Positions 23,409 to 30,757 of a stretch of 33,998 bases of DNA are shown here, one piece after another; within the stretch, counting starts at the first letter, position 1; each line of letters starts with the position of its first letter. The DNA comes from Bacilli bacterium. GTDB taxonomy: Bacteria > Bacillota_I > Bacilli_A > RFN20 > CAG-826. The DNA is taken from contig JAILIP010000027.1 in NCBI GenBank assembly GCA_024695235.1, positions 1-33,998 on the forward strand, in the 5' to 3' direction. The translations under genes and the position numbers were made by a program. The notes under the pieces were generated by a model. The model had not been told where the DNA came from, did no database searches, and saw only the letters and a list, made by a program, of their open reading frames with translations.

Positions 23409-24377
23409 ATGTGGAATATTAAAAACATCAAAATAGATTCACACGTTGTTCTTGGCCCAATGGCAGGAGTAACTTTCCTTTCATATCGCAATTTTATGAA
23501 ACCTTTTGGAGTGGGACTTTCTGTCTCTGAAATGGTGTCTGATTGTGGTCTTATCTATGGAAACAAAACCACGCTTGAATATATCAAAACAAGTGATATC
23601 GATAGACCATGTGCAATACAGCTATTTGGATCAAGTGCAGATACACTATGTAAGGCAATTGATATCGTTTTAGAAAACAACAAAAATATCGATTTAATCG
23701 ATATAAACATTGGTTGTCCAGTTCCTAAAGTCACAAAAACAGGAGCGGGAAGTGCTCTTTTAAAAGACACTAAAAAACTAAAAGAAATTATGACAAAAGT
23801 GGTGGAGCATTTACCTATTCCTGTTACTGCTAAAATTAGACTTGGTTGGGATGATAAATCCATCAATGTTTTTGAAAATGTTAAAGCACTTGAAGAAGCA
23901 GGTGTCGCAATGATTGCAATTCATGTTAGAACTACCAAACAAATGTATTCAGGTAAGGCTAACTACGAAATCATTCGTGATCTTGGGAAAAAGATGAAAG
24001 TACCTCTAGTGATAAGCGGAGATATCTACTCTTTAGAAGATGCAATTAAGGCAAAAGAAATTACAGGTGCAACTGCTGTTATGGTGGCAAGAGGAGGAAT
24101 GGGAAATCCTCATCTTGTTAAGCAAATAGATACATACTTCAATACAGGTGAAAAACTACCAGATGTTTCGCTTGAAGAAAACATCCAATACTTATATAAA
24201 CTCACCGATATGATGATTGAAGAAAAAGGTGAGACTAGAGCAATGATGATTCTTAGAGGAATCGCTCCTAAGTTTTTTGCCAATTATCCAAATACAAAAG
24301 CTCTTAAAAGTGAGCTTGCTCAACATTTATTCACAAGAAAAGATCTTGTTGGAATAGTTAACAAACACATTCACTAA
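23409..24377 (+). CDS. dusB: tRNA-dihydrouridine synthase
   Basis: VLGPMAGVTFLSYRNF, AIQLFGSSADTL, IDINIGCPVPKVTKTGAGSALL, IAIHVRTTKQMYSGKANYE, VISGDIYS. Confidence 0.93.
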   Translation: MWNIKNIKIDSHVVLGPMAGVTFLSYRNFMKPFGVGLSVSEMVSDCGLIYGNKTTLEYIKTSDIDRPCAIQLFGSSADTLCKAIDIVLENNKNIDLIDINIGCPVPKVTKTGAGSALLKDTKKLKEIMTKVVEHLPIPVTAKIRLGWDDKSINVFENVKALEEAGVAMIAIHVRTTKQMYSGKANYEIIRDLGKKMKVPLVISGDIYSLEDAIKAKEITGATAVMVARGGMGNPHLVKQIDTYFNTGEKLPDVSLEENIQYLYKLTDMMIEEKGETRAMMILRGIAPKFFANYPNTKALKSELAQHLFTRKDLVGIVNKHIH

Positions 24378-24393
24378 ACTTAGGCATGCATAC

Positions 24394-24422
24394 TTGCACA
24401 ACTAAGTTAAAAACAATATAAT
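24394..24422 (+). promoter_or_regulatory. Strong promoter predicting a leaderless mRNA for the HTH-DUF3990 gene
   Basis: TTGCAC (24394-24399)-17 nt-TATAAT (24417-24422); 7 nt later is the ATG at 24429. Confidence 0.75.
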
Positions 24423-24428
24423 GATGGT

Positions 24429-25280
24429 ATGTTAAAACAACCATCTTTAAAAGAATTCTTACAGATGTTCATTCTATTTGAAGACGCTTCAGTAGAAGAA
24501 CTAGCAAACGCTATTGGAGTGTCTCCAAGAACAATTTTCAATATCTTTGAAGACAAAAATGTTACTGATGATATCAAACAGAAGTGCTATTCATTTCTGT
24601 ATCGATATAATGGCTCTATTAATAAAGCCACCATTGAGTTCAATCAAGATATATTTGAAGGCAAACTTCTTTACCATGGTTCAAAAGATGGAGTACTTTC
24701 TCCAACAAAAGATGTTTCTAGAGATAAATGTGATTTTGGTAACGGCTTTTATCTAAGCGACAATTATGATCAAGCTGTTGATTTCGTCTGTGCTTATCCA
24801 AATTCAGCAATATATGGTTTTGAATTTCTAAAAGAAAAAGATTTAAATATCGTGACTTTGGATTGTGATTTAGATTGGATGATTTCCATTTGCTATTATC
24901 GTGGCAAGCTAAAAGAATACGAAAATTCCAAAGAATTAAAACGTGCTCTTAAAATAACACAAGATGCTGATGTGATTATTTGTCCAATTGCAGATAATAG
25001 AATGATTCAAATCATTACTAATTTTGCCGATGGAAAAATAACTAGTGAGCAAGCAAAGTATTCTTTAAGAGCACTCAATCTTGGGAATCAATATGTCTTT
25101 AAAACAGACAAAGCATTAAAATGCTTGAGACATATCAATTCCTTCTATCTATGTGAAGTTGAAAAAGCAGAGCATATTAGCAAAGTCAAAGAACGTGTTA
25201 ATGCGACAAGAAAGCATGTTGAAGATACAATCAAGAAATATCGTCGCGATGGCAAATATATAGATGAGGTATTCAAATGA
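24429..25280 (+). CDS. HTH domain fused to DUF3990 (ADP-ribosyltransferase-like) domain; putative toxin
   Basis: N-terminal HTH (FEDASVEELANAIGVSPRTIFNIFED) then GKLLYHGSKDGVLSPTKDVSRDKCDFGNGFYLSDNYDQAVDFVCAYPNSAIYGFEFLKEKDLNIVTLDCDLDWM...DADVIICPIADNRM, matching the DUF3990 pattern (YHGS ... GFYL(S/T) ... AD). Confidence 0.78.
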   Translation: MLKQPSLKEFLQMFILFEDASVEELANAIGVSPRTIFNIFEDKNVTDDIKQKCYSFLYRYNGSINKATIEFNQDIFEGKLLYHGSKDGVLSPTKDVSRDKCDFGNGFYLSDNYDQAVDFVCAYPNSAIYGFEFLKEKDLNIVTLDCDLDWMISICYYRGKLKEYENSKELKRALKITQDADVIICPIADNRMIQIITNFADGKITSEQAKYSLRALNLGNQYVFKTDKALKCLRHINSFYLCEVEKAEHISKVKERVNATRKHVEDTIKKYRRDGKYIDEVFK

Positions 25281-25783
25281 AAGAACTTGATAGTGCCGGT
25301 GTTGAATTAGTGAATTTTCAAGCTGAAGTATTTGAAAAATCAGTTAAGAGATTTTCATGCTCCTCGCCTATATTTATTAGAAGATACATGCTTTCAAAAC
25401 ACACGATGCTTTTAGGAAGAGATATATCTCCATTTGTCCCAACATTAGACTCTGATGAAATACTTGATTTAATTGAAGAAGAATATGGAGAATCTGATTA
25501 TGGAGCGACTAAATATCCAAAGGATGTTATGTCGTGGATTGGATATATGTACATGTACATTGTATACACAAGACAAGTGTCTATTAGACGTGTATATTCT
25601 CTTTTTCCACCTAACTTCATGTATGAGAACTACTATATTTGGCATTCGCAAAGTGAAGAAGTTGCTTTAGATCATTTCATTGAAGTGAACGGATATGATA
25701 AAAACGTTCTCGACAATGAATATCTTTTCAAAGCATATCTAAAAGACAAAGAAAGAGTAACAAAAATAATCAAAGGCTTATAA
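25277..25783 (+). CDS. Conserved-looking hypothetical protein, putative antitoxin/partner of the DUF3990 protein
   Basis: 168 aa; ATGA overlap with the HTH-DUF3990 gene (translational coupling); soluble, no recognised domain. Confidence 0.6.
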   Translation: MKELDSAGVELVNFQAEVFEKSVKRFSCSSPIFIRRYMLSKHTMLLGRDISPFVPTLDSDEILDLIEEEYGESDYGATKYPKDVMSWIGYMYMYIVYTRQVSIRRVYSLFPPNFMYENYYIWHSQSEEVALDHFIEVNGYDKNVLDNEYLFKAYLKDKERVTKIIKGL

Positions 25784-25841: not shown

Positions 25842-27239
25842 ATGAAAAAACTTCTACTAATAGCACCTTTAGCGTTGTCGCTTCTTTTAGTGAGCTGCAA
25901 TAACAAAGACAACGAAAATAAAGGCAGTGATGAGGAACAAACATCACAAGACACACCTACAAGTGGTGATCAAACTCCACCTGAGGATCCATGGAAATCT
26001 CTTTTACCAAAAGAGCTAACCGAATTTAAAAAACTCAATATCGTTGGTACTCAAACTGTAGCCGAAGCTCTCGGAGATGAATTTGATGAAGATGTAATGG
26101 TCAATCATTACCCAAAATTAATCAAAGATTCACAGAAAGAAATGACTGAATACGGCATTGATGAGGGCATGTCTGCTGATACTTCAGTTGCAGATTATTA
26201 TAAAGATGATTTCTACGTTGCTTCTCTCACAAGAAACGAAACTTTTGGCACTGTATATCAATACACAGAAAGTTACACTGATGTAGGATGTTTTTATAAC
26301 AATATTCCTATTATCCACGAACAGGGCTCAGTTGTTGTAACCGCCAGTGGTAGTACTTCAACAAAACCTTATGATAGTTGGAATACCTTCCCAAGCTCAG
26401 GAATGAGTGCGACACAGTCCGCTCTTCAAGGTTTAATTTCATTAATAGATGATAGAGTCATGGGCCTAGAAATGAGTGTTCTAACAACTGATGATTTTTA
26501 CTACATCGTTACAGAAAGAACAACAACTATGAATTACGTAAGCCCTATGGTGTATTCTACAACAGATTTTGAACAAAATATTCTTGAAATCAATAAAGAT
26601 CTTCAATTAACTGGTTATTACTATTTCTCTAACAGTATTGCTGATAAAAACCCCGATACCGGTGAAGAAGTCCCAACATTGATGCAACAAGAAGCATCGG
26701 TGGATTTTCTTACTTACGGCGAACAAGTTGAATATGAAAACAAGACAGAATTCCTTGCATCACTTCCTGGACATACAGTTATGATTGACTATAATGCTGG
26801 TGCAGAACAGTACGATCGTAAATCATACATCAATCTGAAATATAAAGATGCAACAGTAGATGGTGACGGCAATTTAACAGCTGTTGGTTCCTCCACCAAC
26901 GAGGGGAAAATGGCGTATTACCTCAATGGAATGCTAAATTATGAATATAACCTCACATCTTCAACAGGCTATGTCGCGATAAGCGAAATTGATATTGCAT
27001 TACTTATTAAACGCATCACAGAAACTCCTAATGGTGAAGAATTCCAAGTGAGCTTCCAATATAGCAATTCCGATGCGACATTCATGTCCTTACAAGCAGC
27101 AATCCCAAATTCGTCGTTACAGACACTTGATGGAACAAAATATATTGTTTTACAACAAAACTATGTTGTCTTTGTTGCTAGTTTCAATCCAACATTAGTG
27201 GAACCTAGTTTCACATTTGAGGCAGCAGACGCTCGTTAA
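25842..27239 (+). CDS. Predicted lipoprotein of unknown function
   Basis: MKKLLLIAPLALSLLLVSCNNKDNENKGSDEEQTSQDTPTSGDQ: signal peptide, lipobox, low-complexity linker, then ~410 aa with no recognised domain. Confidence 0.8.
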   Translation: MKKLLLIAPLALSLLLVSCNNKDNENKGSDEEQTSQDTPTSGDQTPPEDPWKSLLPKELTEFKKLNIVGTQTVAEALGDEFDEDVMVNHYPKLIKDSQKEMTEYGIDEGMSADTSVADYYKDDFYVASLTRNETFGTVYQYTESYTDVGCFYNNIPIIHEQGSVVVTASGSTSTKPYDSWNTFPSSGMSATQSALQGLISLIDDRVMGLEMSVLTTDDFYYIVTERTTTMNYVSPMVYSTTDFEQNILEINKDLQLTGYYYFSNSIADKNPDTGEEVPTLMQQEASVDFLTYGEQVEYENKTEFLASLPGHTVMIDYNAGAEQYDRKSYINLKYKDATVDGDGNLTAVGSSTNEGKMAYYLNGMLNYEYNLTSSTGYVAISEIDIALLIKRITETPNGEEFQVSFQYSNSDATFMSLQAAIPNSSLQTLDGTKYIVLQQNYVVFVASFNPTLVEPSFTFEAADAR

Positions 27240-27258
27240 AAAACAAGATACGTTCACG

Positions 27259-27285
27259 GCATGGCGGCAAAATCGCCATGCTTTT
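27259..27285 (+). terminator. Rho-independent terminator
   Basis: GCATGGCG-GCAAAAT-CGCCATGC (27259-27281) followed by TTTT. Confidence 0.75.
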
Positions 27286-27312
27286 GCATATATGCACATA
27301 TAAGTGTAAAAT
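27284..27312 (+). promoter_or_regulatory. Promoter of Ig-like lipoprotein gene
   Basis: TTGCAT-17-TAAAAT, starting inside the terminator T run; overlaps the palindrome TGCATATATGCA. Confidence 0.5.
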
Positions 27313-27337
27313 ATACACGTATAGAGGAGATTTTCAT

Positions 27338-30300
27338 ATGAAAAAAATCTTATTAATCGCTCCACTTGCATTATCACTTCTTCTAGCCAGTTGTAATGGC
27401 AATGAAAAGTCCGGTGATAATTCCGGTAGTGGAGATAATCCTACCTCCCAAACTACAGGCACTACTGGTGGAAGCACACCATCTAGTGGTGATCCTACTA
27501 GCGGAGATCCAACGAGTACTACTCAAGTAACTCCTGTCTCGCCAACTATTACTAAAGTGGCATGGCACAATATCAACACTGGATCTATTACTCTTGATAA
27601 CGGAGCAGAACAAATTGTTCAAGCTAACGTTTCAGGTACACCTGGTCGTGATGAAAATGGTAATACCATTGCTTATGATCACAGCTCATCATTTTCTACA
27701 GAACAAACTGATATTGTTGAGTTAACACCTATGGACCCATTATCTGCCAATGGTGGTTCAAGATGTAAAATCAGAGCCAAACATGTTGGAACAGCTTATG
27801 TTGTTGCAACCGCTAATGGCGATGATTCAAAGACAGTTACATTAACAGTCAATGTTCAATCTGATGGCACAGTTGCAGCAATCATTTCTGTTACAACTCA
27901 TCCAGATACCGTTTTCCTTGGTAAGGAAATCAAGGCAGACACAGTCGGTCTTAAAGTTAGACTTGATGATAATACTGAGGTTGACAACTATAGACCAAGT
28001 AGAGTTGCCTGTGATACAGCTACTCCGGGTGTAAAGACTGCTACTGCAATTATCGATTTAGATGATGAATTATTCTTATCTACTACATTTGAAGTTGAAG
28101 TACTTGATGTCGCTGAAACAAAAGCGTTGTTTACTAGTGCTAGCTTTGCCACAGAAAATAATATCTTTGACTCTTCAAACGATAACACACATTCTAAAGC
28201 TGGCAACAACTTTGATAGTAGTGGTTCAATTGAAACCGGTAAACGTGGTGTTCAAGTCACATACGGAAATAGTGCATTTACTACATCAAACGCATCATAT
28301 ACACATATTGTTGGATTTGAAGTAGTCTACTCATCCAATGGTGCTACAGGAAATATCACTGTTAGTGTCGGTGGAGTTAACAAGTTCCAAATCAACAATA
28401 ATGGTGGTTCATTAACAAACGAACACGCCATTCAAATGTTTGATACTGAAATTGCTGGTGATGTCAAATTATCAATTAATAACACTGGCACATCAAAATC
28501 ACTTTATGTCCAATCAATCTCTATTATTCAAAATAGAGTCCAAGAAGGTATTGAAGTACTAACTCCTGGAAAAGTTGAATATGCATACGGCGAAACATTT
28601 GACTTATCAGGCTATGTTGTTGTTCCAAAATACAATGTTGGACAAGCAACAGCTGCTGAAGCAATTGATCATTCTAATTTAAGTGTTTCACCTAATAGAG
28701 AACTTACTGCAGAAGATACAGAAGTTACAATATCTCTCAATGAGTCTGCATATTCGGTTACTCAAGCAATCACTGTTGTTGAAACATTACCAAGTTACAT
28801 CAATGTTTCATTTGATGATTCTATTTATGACGTTATCGATGAAGGTAATAAACAATTCAATCTTGAAATTGGTAATGCCTATGATTTTGCAACAACAATT
28901 ACTGTTGATCCAAGTGCATCAAGAAAAGAATATATATTTGATTCTGAAAATGCATGTGCAACATTTGATGACTCAACCAACACATTAGCTATTGATGTAT
29001 CAACATTAACTGATGAAGTTGATTTCGATATCACATTTAAATATGTGAACACTCCAACAGTTAAAGAAACATATAAAGTTCACGTCATCGATTCATCACA
29101 ACCTCACCTAAGTGAAGTTGTTGTTTCTGGTACTCCGAGTGCACCAGAACAATATGAAGGTGAAACACTCAATCCAGCCGGATTAACATTCACTGCTAAT
29201 TACACAAACGGTGGTGCATCAGTCAGCTTAACCGCCGAAGATATTACATTACCAACACTTGTTTACGGTGAAGATATCGTCTGCTCATACGAAGACGCTA
29301 ATGGTGATTCAGTCGAATTTACAGTCACAGGTATCACGATTCTTCAAGACGCAATCTCCGGATTGGTTATCGAAGGTAGTCTTGCTAATGATAGCTACGA
29401 AGTTGGCGAATATGTCAGTGCAGCAGGTCTTGTTGTCTATGCTGAATATCATGCACGTGAAAGAGAAAACGTTACCACTGAAGTTACATGGACATACAAT
29501 GATGAAAATTCACTTCAATTAAATGATGCAGGCAATATCTCTGTAACATTCAAAGCTTCCTATAGTGGTGAAGAAGCAAGTGTCACTTACGGTATTATCG
29601 TTAGTGATCAACAAACACTTGAATATGATTTCTCACAAATCAGTGGCTTTGATACTTGGACAGCAACATATGCTAACGATCATGAAGTTGAATACACAGA
29701 TGCAACTGTCAAGTTCTGTGGATCAGCACGTCAAACTACTACAATCACTGATGTCCCAATTGTCAAAGGAACTGATGTAATCTTCAAACTAAAAGATACA
29801 ACAAAATCTATAACAGAATTTGAACTTACCTGTAGACAATGGAATGATAAAGCTAAAACCATGAAAGCATATCCATCCACTGATAGTGGTGAATCATATG
29901 GAACTAGCATCGCTTCCACAACAGTTTCAAATTCAACAACTGGTACAACATTTAAAGTCAGCAAGAACTCAGGTATTGCCGATGGTGTTAATGCACTTAA
30001 GTTCAATGCTGGTGTATCTGGTGATACTGGATATAGCAATAACGTCGGTATTGTTTCATTAAAAGTTGTCTTAGGAGAAGCAACTCCTGCAAAACAAGTT
30101 ACAGAAATTACTTCTATTGAAGGTGGAGTTACTGCTCACCTCAATCATCCTTGGGATACAAGTGCAATTGTTGTCAAAGGAAAATTTGAAGGCGATAGCG
30201 TTTCTTCAGTGATTACCGATTTAGTTGATTTAGACATCAGTCCTGCTACTGCTACTTCTATGGATTTAGAAGAGGTAAGCGTGACTGCTACATTGACATC

Positions 30301-30757
30301 AGATAACACAAAGACATTAACAAACGAACACGTCGCAGCTACCGTTGAAGCTTCAACAAGTCAAGAAGTGACATATACATTCACAAACAAATCTTGGACT
30401 GATTCAACAAACTCATGGGTTAGTGATAACGATGGTGGTCAACTTTCTTCCGGAAAAGGCGTTCAAGTAACAGCGACTTATTCTGGTGCTGGAGCACACA
30501 CAAATGCATCCTTCTATGGTGTATCCAAAATCGTGTTTACATACTGCACAAACAAGAGTAGTGGTACAGGTGCCATCAATGTCCAAATTGGTGAAAATAC
30601 TGCTATTAGTCAAAGCGTCAATAGCACTGGTGGAACTACACTTAGAACAATGGAATTCGTGATTGATCCATCACAAACTGGTGTGATCACATTCTCTGTT
30701 GATTGTTCTGAAAATAGTATCTACATTAGTTCTATCGCAGTAACAAGCTTAGTCTAA
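27338..30757 (+). CDS. Large multi-domain surface lipoprotein with bacterial Ig-like domains
   Basis: MKKILLIAPLALSLLLASCNGNEKSGDNSGSG lipobox plus Ser/Thr/Gly linker; several Big_3/Big_2-like segments (e.g. YAYGETFDLSGYVVVPKY, QYEGETLNPAGLTFTANYTNGG, YEVGEYVSAAGLVVYAEY) alternating with repeated beta-sandwich-like modules. AGAGGAG SD supports 27338. Confidence 0.85.
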   Translation: MKKILLIAPLALSLLLASCNGNEKSGDNSGSGDNPTSQTTGTTGGSTPSSGDPTSGDPTSTTQVTPVSPTITKVAWHNINTGSITLDNGAEQIVQANVSGTPGRDENGNTIAYDHSSSFSTEQTDIVELTPMDPLSANGGSRCKIRAKHVGTAYVVATANGDDSKTVTLTVNVQSDGTVAAIISVTTHPDTVFLGKEIKADTVGLKVRLDDNTEVDNYRPSRVACDTATPGVKTATAIIDLDDELFLSTTFEVEVLDVAETKALFTSASFATENNIFDSSNDNTHSKAGNNFDSSGSIETGKRGVQVTYGNSAFTTSNASYTHIVGFEVVYSSNGATGNITVSVGGVNKFQINNNGGSLTNEHAIQMFDTEIAGDVKLSINNTGTSKSLYVQSISIIQNRVQEGIEVLTPGKVEYAYGETFDLSGYVVVPKYNVGQATAAEAIDHSNLSVSPNRELTAEDTEVTISLNESAYSVTQAITVVETLPSYINVSFDDSIYDVIDEGNKQFNLEIGNAYDFATTITVDPSASRKEYIFDSENACATFDDSTNTLAIDVSTLTDEVDFDITFKYVNTPTVKETYKVHVIDSSQPHLSEVVVSGTPSAPEQYEGETLNPAGLTFTANYTNGGASVSLTAEDITLPTLVYGEDIVCSYEDANGDSVEFTVTGITILQDAISGLVIEGSLANDSYEVGEYVSAAGLVVYAEYHARERENVTTEVTWTYNDENSLQLNDAGNISVTFKASYSGEEASVTYGIIVSDQQTLEYDFSQISGFDTWTATYANDHEVEYTDATVKFCGSARQTTTITDVPIVKGTDVIFKLKDTTKSITEFELTCRQWNDKAKTMKAYPSTDSGESYGTSIASTTVSNSTTGTTFKVSKNSGIADGVNALKFNAGVSGDTGYSNNVGIVSLKVVLGEATPAKQVTEITSIEGGVTAHLNHPWDTSAIVVKGKFEGDSVSSVITDLVDLDISPATATSMDLEEVSVTATLTSDNTKTLTNEHVAATVEASTSQEVTYTFTNKSWTDSTNSWVSDNDGGQLSSGKGVQVTATYSGAGAHTNASFYGVSKIVFTYCTNKSSGTGAINVQIGENTAISQSVNSTGGTTLRTMEFVIDPSQTGVITFSVDCSENSIYISSIAVTSLV

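What the first reader, a model, noticed from the sequence alone, without database searches (positions are those of the whole stretch)
24394..25783. Candidate toxin-antitoxin pair: HTH-DUF3990 (ADP-ribosyltransferase-like) protein with ATGA-overlapping partner of unknown fold
Seen: a compact two-gene unit with its own strong promoter (TTGCAC-17-TATAAT) and 4-nt gene overlap. The first protein has an N-terminal HTH followed by a DUF3990-like segment (YHGS...GFYLS...ADVIICPIADN). Established: DUF3990 belongs to the ART-like enzyme families and ARTs are toxins in known TA classes such as DarTG and RES-Xre. Inference: toxin fused to its own DNA-binding domain, with the 168-aa downstream protein as antitoxin or immunity factor. 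The HTH-on-toxin arrangement and the unrecognised partner make it a plausible undescribed TA/defence type.
Basis: partly seen in the sequence, partly recalled or inferred. Interest (0 to 1): 0.72.

Follow-up and report, generated by a model that had tools for sequence, protein, structure and literature searches.

The report
Self-repressing ADP-ribosyltransferase toxin–antitoxin pair (predicted)
A two-gene bacterial module in which a predicted NAD-using toxin carries its own DNA-binding domain, and probably switches off its own promoter, is followed by a helical antitoxin with no known structural relative; software has listed such pairs as a phage-defence candidate, but I found no experimental work on them.

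Summary
The two genes are real: A, 24429-25280, and B, 25277-25783, with an ATGA overlap. A is an Xre-type HTH fused to a DUF3990 domain (Pfam E 1e-31), an ART-clan family; the H-Y-Q residues (H83, Y108, Q221) are invariant in 78/78 relatives. B is confidently predicted as all-helical with no PDB or BFVD match. Its C-terminal half is DUF3791-like; its N-terminal half may be a second such unit. In 279 genomes of the order, 91/91 close HTH-type A genes or fragments have B directly downstream. Damage is lopsided: eight intact B genes lack A, and others follow a truncated or stopped A; the one standalone A with a long open frame has a ruined active site. One MAG shows the reverse. A 31-32 bp inverted repeat (AACTT-N21/22-AAGTT) lies upstream of A in 48/82 relatives (shuffles: 0.38), in the window over the -35 box, and in 0/23 related loci whose A lacks the HTH. 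Best reading: an ART toxin that carries the operon's repressor domain, neutralised by B. PADLOC already lists the pair as candidate PDC-M42. New here: the HTH on the toxin, the operator, the loss asymmetry, the kinship with PDC-M13. Toxicity, target and defence are untested.

The parts
24377..24408 (.). Predicted operator AACTTAG-N18-CTAAGTT (family form AACTT-N21/22-AAGTT), covering the -35 box
   Evidence: 48 of 82 non-redundant relatives have the motif upstream of A (shuffles mean 0.38, max 4); 0 of 23 loci whose A lacks the HTH; only one site in the host assembly. The window's 7-bp repeat alone is not significant, 50/200 shuffles reach it.
24394..24399 (+). -35-like hexamer TTGCAC
   Evidence: sequence; not above chance as a bare consensus match
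24417..24422 (+). -10 hexamer TATAAT, 6 nt before the start codon (near-leaderless message)
   Evidence: sequence
24429..25280 (+). Gene A, 283 aa: Xre-type HTH + DUF3990 (ADP-ribosyltransferase-like) + C-terminal helices; predicted toxin and autorepressor
24447..24611 (+). HTH domain of A (helices at residues 7-61)
   Evidence: AlphaFold model; Foldseek to ClgR, HigA, HipB; profile match to CylR2 E 3e-4 and HipB E 0.01
24663..25148 (+). DUF3990 ART-like domain of A (residues 79-240)
   Evidence: Pfam PF13151 E 9.9e-32; model strands 79-85, 107-110, 220-224 carry H83, Y108, Q221
24675..24677 (+). H83 codon, first residue of the predicted H-Y-Q triad
   Evidence: invariant 78/78
24750..24752 (+). 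Y108 codon, second residue of the triad (DFGxGFY motif)
   Evidence: invariant 78/78
25089..25091 (+). Q221 codon, third residue of the triad (LGxQYV motif)
   Evidence: invariant 78/78
25277..25280 (+). ATGA overlap of A stop and B start
   Evidence: sequence; exactly 4-nt overlap in 72 of 90 loci
25277..25783 (+). Gene B, 168 aa, all-helical; predicted antitoxin
   Evidence: PADLOC PDC-M42B E 1.4e-7; AlphaFold pLDDT 91.9, pTM 0.86; no PDB or BFVD relative
25277..25504 (+). B, N-terminal four-helix unit (residues 1-76), weakly similar to the second small protein of PDC-M13 loci
   Evidence: hhalign P 0.0024 to that family, 0.17 to DUF3791; helices 6-25, 30-38, 41-48, 59-70
25505..25726 (+). 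B, C-terminal four-helix unit (residues 77-150), DUF3791-like
   Evidence: hhalign 88.8%, E 2.4e-6 to DUF3791; Pfam DUF3791 hit (below cut-off) at this place in homologues L004, L082, L118; helices 82-99, 103-109, 112-122, 127-137

Best explanation
A and B form a type II-like toxin-antitoxin module. A's DUF3990 domain, an H-Y-[EDQ]-type ADP-ribosyltransferase fold, uses NAD+ to modify an essential cell component (or to cleave NAD+) and is toxic when free. B, translated coupled to A, binds A and blocks it. A's N-terminal HTH binds the AACTT-N21/22-AAGTT operator over the -35 box, probably as a dimer or as an A-B complex, and represses the operon, so here the toxin rather than the antitoxin carries the repressor domain. 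Loss of B, or a trigger such as phage takeover, frees A. Shown by computation: gene pair, domains, triad conservation, co-occurrence, loss asymmetry, operator-HTH correlation. Inferred: toxicity, neutralisation by binding, repression, trigger, target.
For: Co-conservation: 91/91 close HTH-type A genes or fragments in 279 genomes have B directly downstream; the 80 genome-wide loci with enough contig do too. Loss asymmetry: 8 B genes intact with A deleted or reduced to a C-terminal stump, 4 of them still downstream of the operator; A with an in-frame stop and intact B in L007; N-truncated A with intact B in L226. The standalone L220, with an otherwise full-length A frame, has Y108 to S, Q221 to R and PIADN to PQTNE. 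Triad H83, Y108, Q221 invariant in 78/78 and placed on strands in a model of pLDDT 93. DUF3990 is in Pfam's ART clan (PMC7955679), and H-Y-[EDQ] is one of three ART clades (PMC9503650). A DUF3990 domain forms the C-terminus of a Rhs protein with a neighbouring predicted immunity gene (PMC4524185). HTH resembles HigA/HipB antitoxin repressors. Operator: 48/82 against 0.38 expected, and 0/23 where A lacks the HTH. Related DUF3990 genes sit on Bacteroides and Lactobacillus plasmids, one record also holding a HipA pair. The locus is accessory: 16 of 19 congeners have dus directly followed by lysS.
Against: No experiment. L027 (a MAG) has an intact A with an in-frame stop in B, though an assembly or base error is possible. 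Two 145-kb viral contigs carry a full-length A homologue with no recognisable B. The ART assignment rests on Pfam clan membership and motif; Foldseek listed only HTH hits in its top 50, the tankyrase matches are marginal (E about 0.08) and were not reproduced by a DUF3990-only profile. The window's B departs from two nearly invariant residues, D47 to G and R93 to M. Antitoxin-first gene order is more usual in type II modules (my knowledge); here the toxin comes first.
Confidence: 0.72

Rival explanations
1. Same two-part logic, but A is an NAD+-consuming enzyme (hydrolase or phosphorylase, like RES toxins) and starves the cell of NAD+ instead of modifying a macromolecule; its role is abortive phage defence.
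For: RES-Xre toxins degrade NAD+ (reference cited in PMC9503650); A matches phage-defence candidate profiles PDC-M10/M13/M42; HTH relatives are typical of TA regulators.
Against: Residues fit the H-Y-[EDQ] clade rather than the H-H-h clade described as acting on RNA repair and small molecules. No defence island or prophage was seen around the window locus; its neighbours are dus, two lipoprotein genes and lysS.
Confidence: 0.25
2. B is not an inhibitor but a partner subunit or chaperone that A needs; the pair is one enzyme or stress regulator.
For: Strict gene order and 4-nt overlap are equally expected for subunits; B sometimes carries a GNAT or pyrophosphatase-like domain.
Against: Intact B is often found without A, sometimes still behind the operator, whereas A alone is seen in this clade only truncated or with a ruined active site. 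Subunits should be lost together.
Confidence: 0.12
3. A is an ordinary transcription regulator whose DUF3990 part senses NAD+ or ADP-ribose and controls its own operon; there is no toxin.
For: Strong conserved operator next to its own gene.
Against: The window's exact operator occurs once in the host assembly, so no regulon is apparent. The whole predicted triad is invariant. DUF3990 occurs without HTH in relatives and at the tip of a Rhs protein.
Confidence: 0.07

Closest known systems
PADLOC-DB phage defence candidate PDC-M42 (PDLC04640-04642)
   Same: DUF3990 protein directly followed by the B family; both window proteins match the two subunit models. Loci such as L210 match best (A 2e-39, B 9e-13).
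   Different: In L204 and L210-L212 the HTH is at the C-terminus of B and A has none; in the window family it is at the N-terminus of A and B has none. Window matches to PDC-M42 are much weaker than those of L210.
PADLOC-DB candidate PDC-M13 (DUF3990 + two small DUF3791-like proteins)
   Same: Same DUF3990 core; the two small proteins correspond to the two halves of B (the N-terminal half tentatively).
   Different: Three genes, or HTH fused to DUF3791 (L103-L114), instead of HTH-DUF3990 plus a fused double-unit partner; the AACTT operator is absent.
RES-Xre (Xre-RES) type II toxin-antitoxin systems
   Same: ART-fold toxin combined with an Xre HTH that regulates the operon (established knowledge; RES-Xre reference in PMC9503650).
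   Different: There the HTH is on the antitoxin and the toxin is a RES domain; here the HTH is on a DUF3990 protein.
DarTG and CmdTAC
   Same: ADP-ribosyltransferase toxins with antitoxins that act against phage (PMC9503650; PMC11618068).
   Different: Different ART families and unrelated antitoxins; DarG is an ADP-ribosyl-glycohydrolase, while B has no such domain (DarG from my knowledge; B).
Serratia Rhs5 C-terminal domain
   Same: DUF3990 domain with a neighbouring predicted immunity gene (PMC4524185).
   Different: Part of a secreted T6SS Rhs protein; no HTH.

Membership tests
PADLOC PDC-M42 | Protein A matches a PDC-M42A model | tested here: met
   PDLC04641 E 3.7e-13, PDLC04640 E 1.3e-6, but PDC-M13A scores better (5e-21)
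PADLOC PDC-M42 | Neighbouring protein matches PDC-M42B | tested here: met
   PDLC04642 E 1.4e-7, residues 10-131
PADLOC PDC-M42 | Shown to defend against phage | not testable with these tools
   no paper in the library names PDC-M42
Pfam DUF3990 (ART clan) | Score above gathering cut-off | tested here: met
   110.2 bits against 32.2
ART superfamily, H-Y-[EDQ] clade | Conserved H, Y and E/D/Q on the core strands | tested here: met
   H83, Y108, Q221 invariant 78/78, all in predicted strands
ART superfamily, H-Y-[EDQ] clade | ART fold recognised by structure comparison | tested here: inconclusive
   top 50 PDB matches are all HTH-type regulators; tankyrase sequence matches marginal and absent with a DUF3990-only profile
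Pfam DUF3791 | Partner scores above cut-off | tested here: not met
   no Pfam hit for B; homologues reach 15.6-17.4 bits against 25. Related (hhalign E 2.4e-6), not a member
Type II toxin-antitoxin system | Two adjacent, overlapping protein genes, co-conserved | tested here: met
   91/91 paired; 72/90 with 4-nt overlap
Type II toxin-antitoxin system | Autoregulation by an operator-binding component | tested here: inconclusive
   conserved operator tracks the HTH; binding not tested
Type II toxin-antitoxin system | Toxicity neutralised by the partner protein | not testable with these tools
   only indirect: loss asymmetry
RES-Xre | RES domain toxin with separate Xre antitoxin | tested here: not met
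   no RES match; HTH lies on the ART protein

The most novel reading that the evidence does not exclude
A toxin-antitoxin class in which the DNA-binding autorepressor is part of the toxin, so that free toxin both poisons the cell and sits on its own promoter, with a helical antitoxin built from two DUF3791-like units of a fold not yet solved; the HTH has moved between toxin and antitoxin during evolution.
Probability: 0.5. Interest if true: 0.65.

Novelty: new variant of a known kind. Interest (0 to 1): 0.52.

Why it matters
DUF3990/DUF3791 modules are common (3,324 PDC-M13 calls in one rumen survey, PMC13356809), yet I found no mechanism for them in the library. If correct, this family explains DUF3791 as an antitoxin fold, gives an ART toxin that is its own repressor (the reverse of the usual arrangement, in which the antitoxin represses), and supplies a concrete operator sequence and active-site residues that can be tested at once.

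Tried and rejected
The promoter as evidence on its own: not above shuffles. The window inverted repeat on its own: 50/200 shuffles reach it; it counts only through the family-wide motif. NCBIfam and PHROGs: nothing that bears on function. Foldseek of B in PDB and BFVD: nothing at E below 0.001; a 112-aa phage protein (A0A8S5PEP0, prob 0.51, 78 columns at 2.8 A) is a weak lead. Foldseek of A: only HTH matches listed. DUF3990-only profile against PDB sequences: no ART hit. DUF3791 as a direct label for B: rejected, below cut-off. Comparison of the B alignment with a single DUF3791 sequence: weak, P 0.009; only profile against profile was convincing. Of 13 B-only loci I set aside 3 at contig edges and 2 in which both genes are broken. 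A co-fold of A with B was not possible with single-chain jobs.

Full report
WHAT IS THERE. Gene A (24429-25280, 283 aa) and gene B (25277-25783, 168 aa) overlap by ATGA. A has DUF3990 (PF13151) on residues 81-234, E 9.9e-32. Its N-terminus is only weakly recognised as HTH in the window protein, but homologues hit HTH_3 and HTH_26, the alignment profile hits CylR2 and HipB structures, and the AlphaFold model (pLDDT 93.3, pTM 0.89) resembles ClgR, HigA and HipB. B has no Pfam, NCBIfam or useful PHROG match. Its model is confident (pLDDT 91.9, pTM 0.86), all-helical, and without a PDB or BFVD relative at E below 0.001.

ALREADY CATALOGUED. PADLOC-DB models PDC-M42A and PDC-M42B match the two proteins. 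No paper in the library names PDC-M42. PDC-M13, which is DUF3990 with two small DUF3791-like proteins, is abundant in the rumen (PMC13356809). DUF3990 and DUF3791 are almost absent from the literature held.

THE PAIR IS A UNIT. In 58 related genomes, 11 B homologues were found and 10 have A directly upstream, one of them interrupted by a stop; the eleventh (L006) keeps only a C-terminal stump of A. In a genome-wide scan of GTDB species, 80 loci (Lachnospiraceae, Erysipelotrichaceae, other Bacilli and Clostridia) show A then B, except L052, where the contig ends. The overlap is exactly 4 nt in 72 of 90 loci. In 279 genomes of the order, 91 of 91 close HTH-type A genes or fragments have B next to them. 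More divergent HTH-A proteins (L221, L223) also have an overlapping B-like partner.

WHICH ONE IS THE TOXIN. Of 13 B genes without A, 3 lie at contig edges, 2 loci are broken in both genes, and 8 have an intact B with A deleted or reduced to a stump. Four of these eight still have the operator upstream. L007 has a stop in A and intact B, and L226 an N-truncated A with intact B. The one standalone A with a long open frame in the order survey that I examined, L220, has Y108 to S, Q221 to R and PIADN to PQTNE; L225 is truncated. One case runs the other way: L027, intact A with an in-frame stop in B. Two 145-kb viral contigs carry A homologues without B. On balance A behaves like the component that cannot be kept alone.

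WHAT A DOES. H83, Y108 and Q221 are invariant in 78/78 relatives and lie in the strands expected for an ART core. Pfam places DUF3990 in its ART clan (PMC7955679). A survey of NAD+/ADP-ribose systems defines H-H-h, H-Y-[EDQ] and R-S-E clades of ARTs (PMC9503650). The A profile finds tankyrase catalytic domains with marginal E-values near 0.08, the only enzyme family with repeated hits in this region, but a DUF3990-only profile did not repeat this. So the ART fold is well supported by family membership and motif, and not independently proved here.

WHAT B IS. Its model shows two successive sets of four helices plus a C-terminal helix. The C-terminal set matches DUF3791 (hhalign 88.8%, E 2.4e-6), the N-terminal set matches the other small PDC-M13 protein weakly (P 0.0024) and not DUF3791 (0.17), and the two halves match each other weakly (P 0.003). 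Pfam's DUF3791 also picks the same stretch in three B homologues below the cut-off. B therefore looks like the two small PDC-M13 partners in one chain; the N-terminal part of that claim is tentative. Some B proteins carry a GNAT or pyrophosphatase-like domain.

THE HTH HAS MOVED. Four arrangements occur: no HTH (L095, L101); HTH fused to DUF3791, then DUF3990 (L103-L114); DUF3990, then B with a C-terminal HTH (L204, L210-L212); and HTH-DUF3990, then B (the window). The direction of the move was not resolved by a tree.

OPERATOR. Upstream of A, 48 of 82 non-redundant loci carry AACTT-N20-23-AAGTT, in practice N21 or N22, often as a near-perfect palindrome such as AACTTGTTTGTTCAACTTGAACAAACAAGTT, against a shuffle mean of 0.38. 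None of 23 loci in which A has no HTH carry it. The window copy (24377-24408) covers the -35 box, and its exact form occurs once in the host assembly. This points to autorepression by A's own HTH.

LOCATION. Sixteen of 19 congeners have dus followed directly by lysS. In the window A-B and two lipoprotein genes lie between them, so the module is accessory.

VERDICT. A predicted ART toxin-antitoxin module with the repressor domain on the toxin; a new variant of a known kind, already listed as a candidate defence system without mechanism. The toxin role is likely, the biochemical target open, and defence untested.

Noticed in passing
L199 5917-6810 and L200 5935-6825 (IMG/VR contigs of about 145 kb): Full-length A homologues without recognisable B, in a run of co-directional viral genes; triad residues retained in L199. 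Possibly a viral ART used against the host.
   Followed up: partly
L004, L082, L118; L062, L068, L078: B proteins with C-terminal extensions: pyrophosphatase-like (L082; similar sequence in L004, L118) or GNAT acetyltransferase (L062, L068, L078).
   Followed up: partly
L107 1189-2418 and L110 739-1935: HTH, DUF3791, the second small protein and a GNAT domain in one open frame, with no DUF3990 found nearby.
   Followed up: no
L218 (Parabacteroides plasmid NZ_OY725783.1) 3132-4060: DUF3791-DUF3990 pair on an 8.6-kb plasmid, in the same record as a HTH-HipA toxin-antitoxin pair and an SSB gene.
   Followed up: no
window 25842-30757: Two lipoprotein-like genes (465 and 1159 aa) with similar signal peptides, placed with A-B between dus and lysS; L181 has other lipoprotein genes at the same spot.
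   Followed up: partly
window 25277-25783: The window's B departs from two nearly invariant residues: D47 is G (69/70 have D) and R93 is M (68/70 have R).
   Followed up: no
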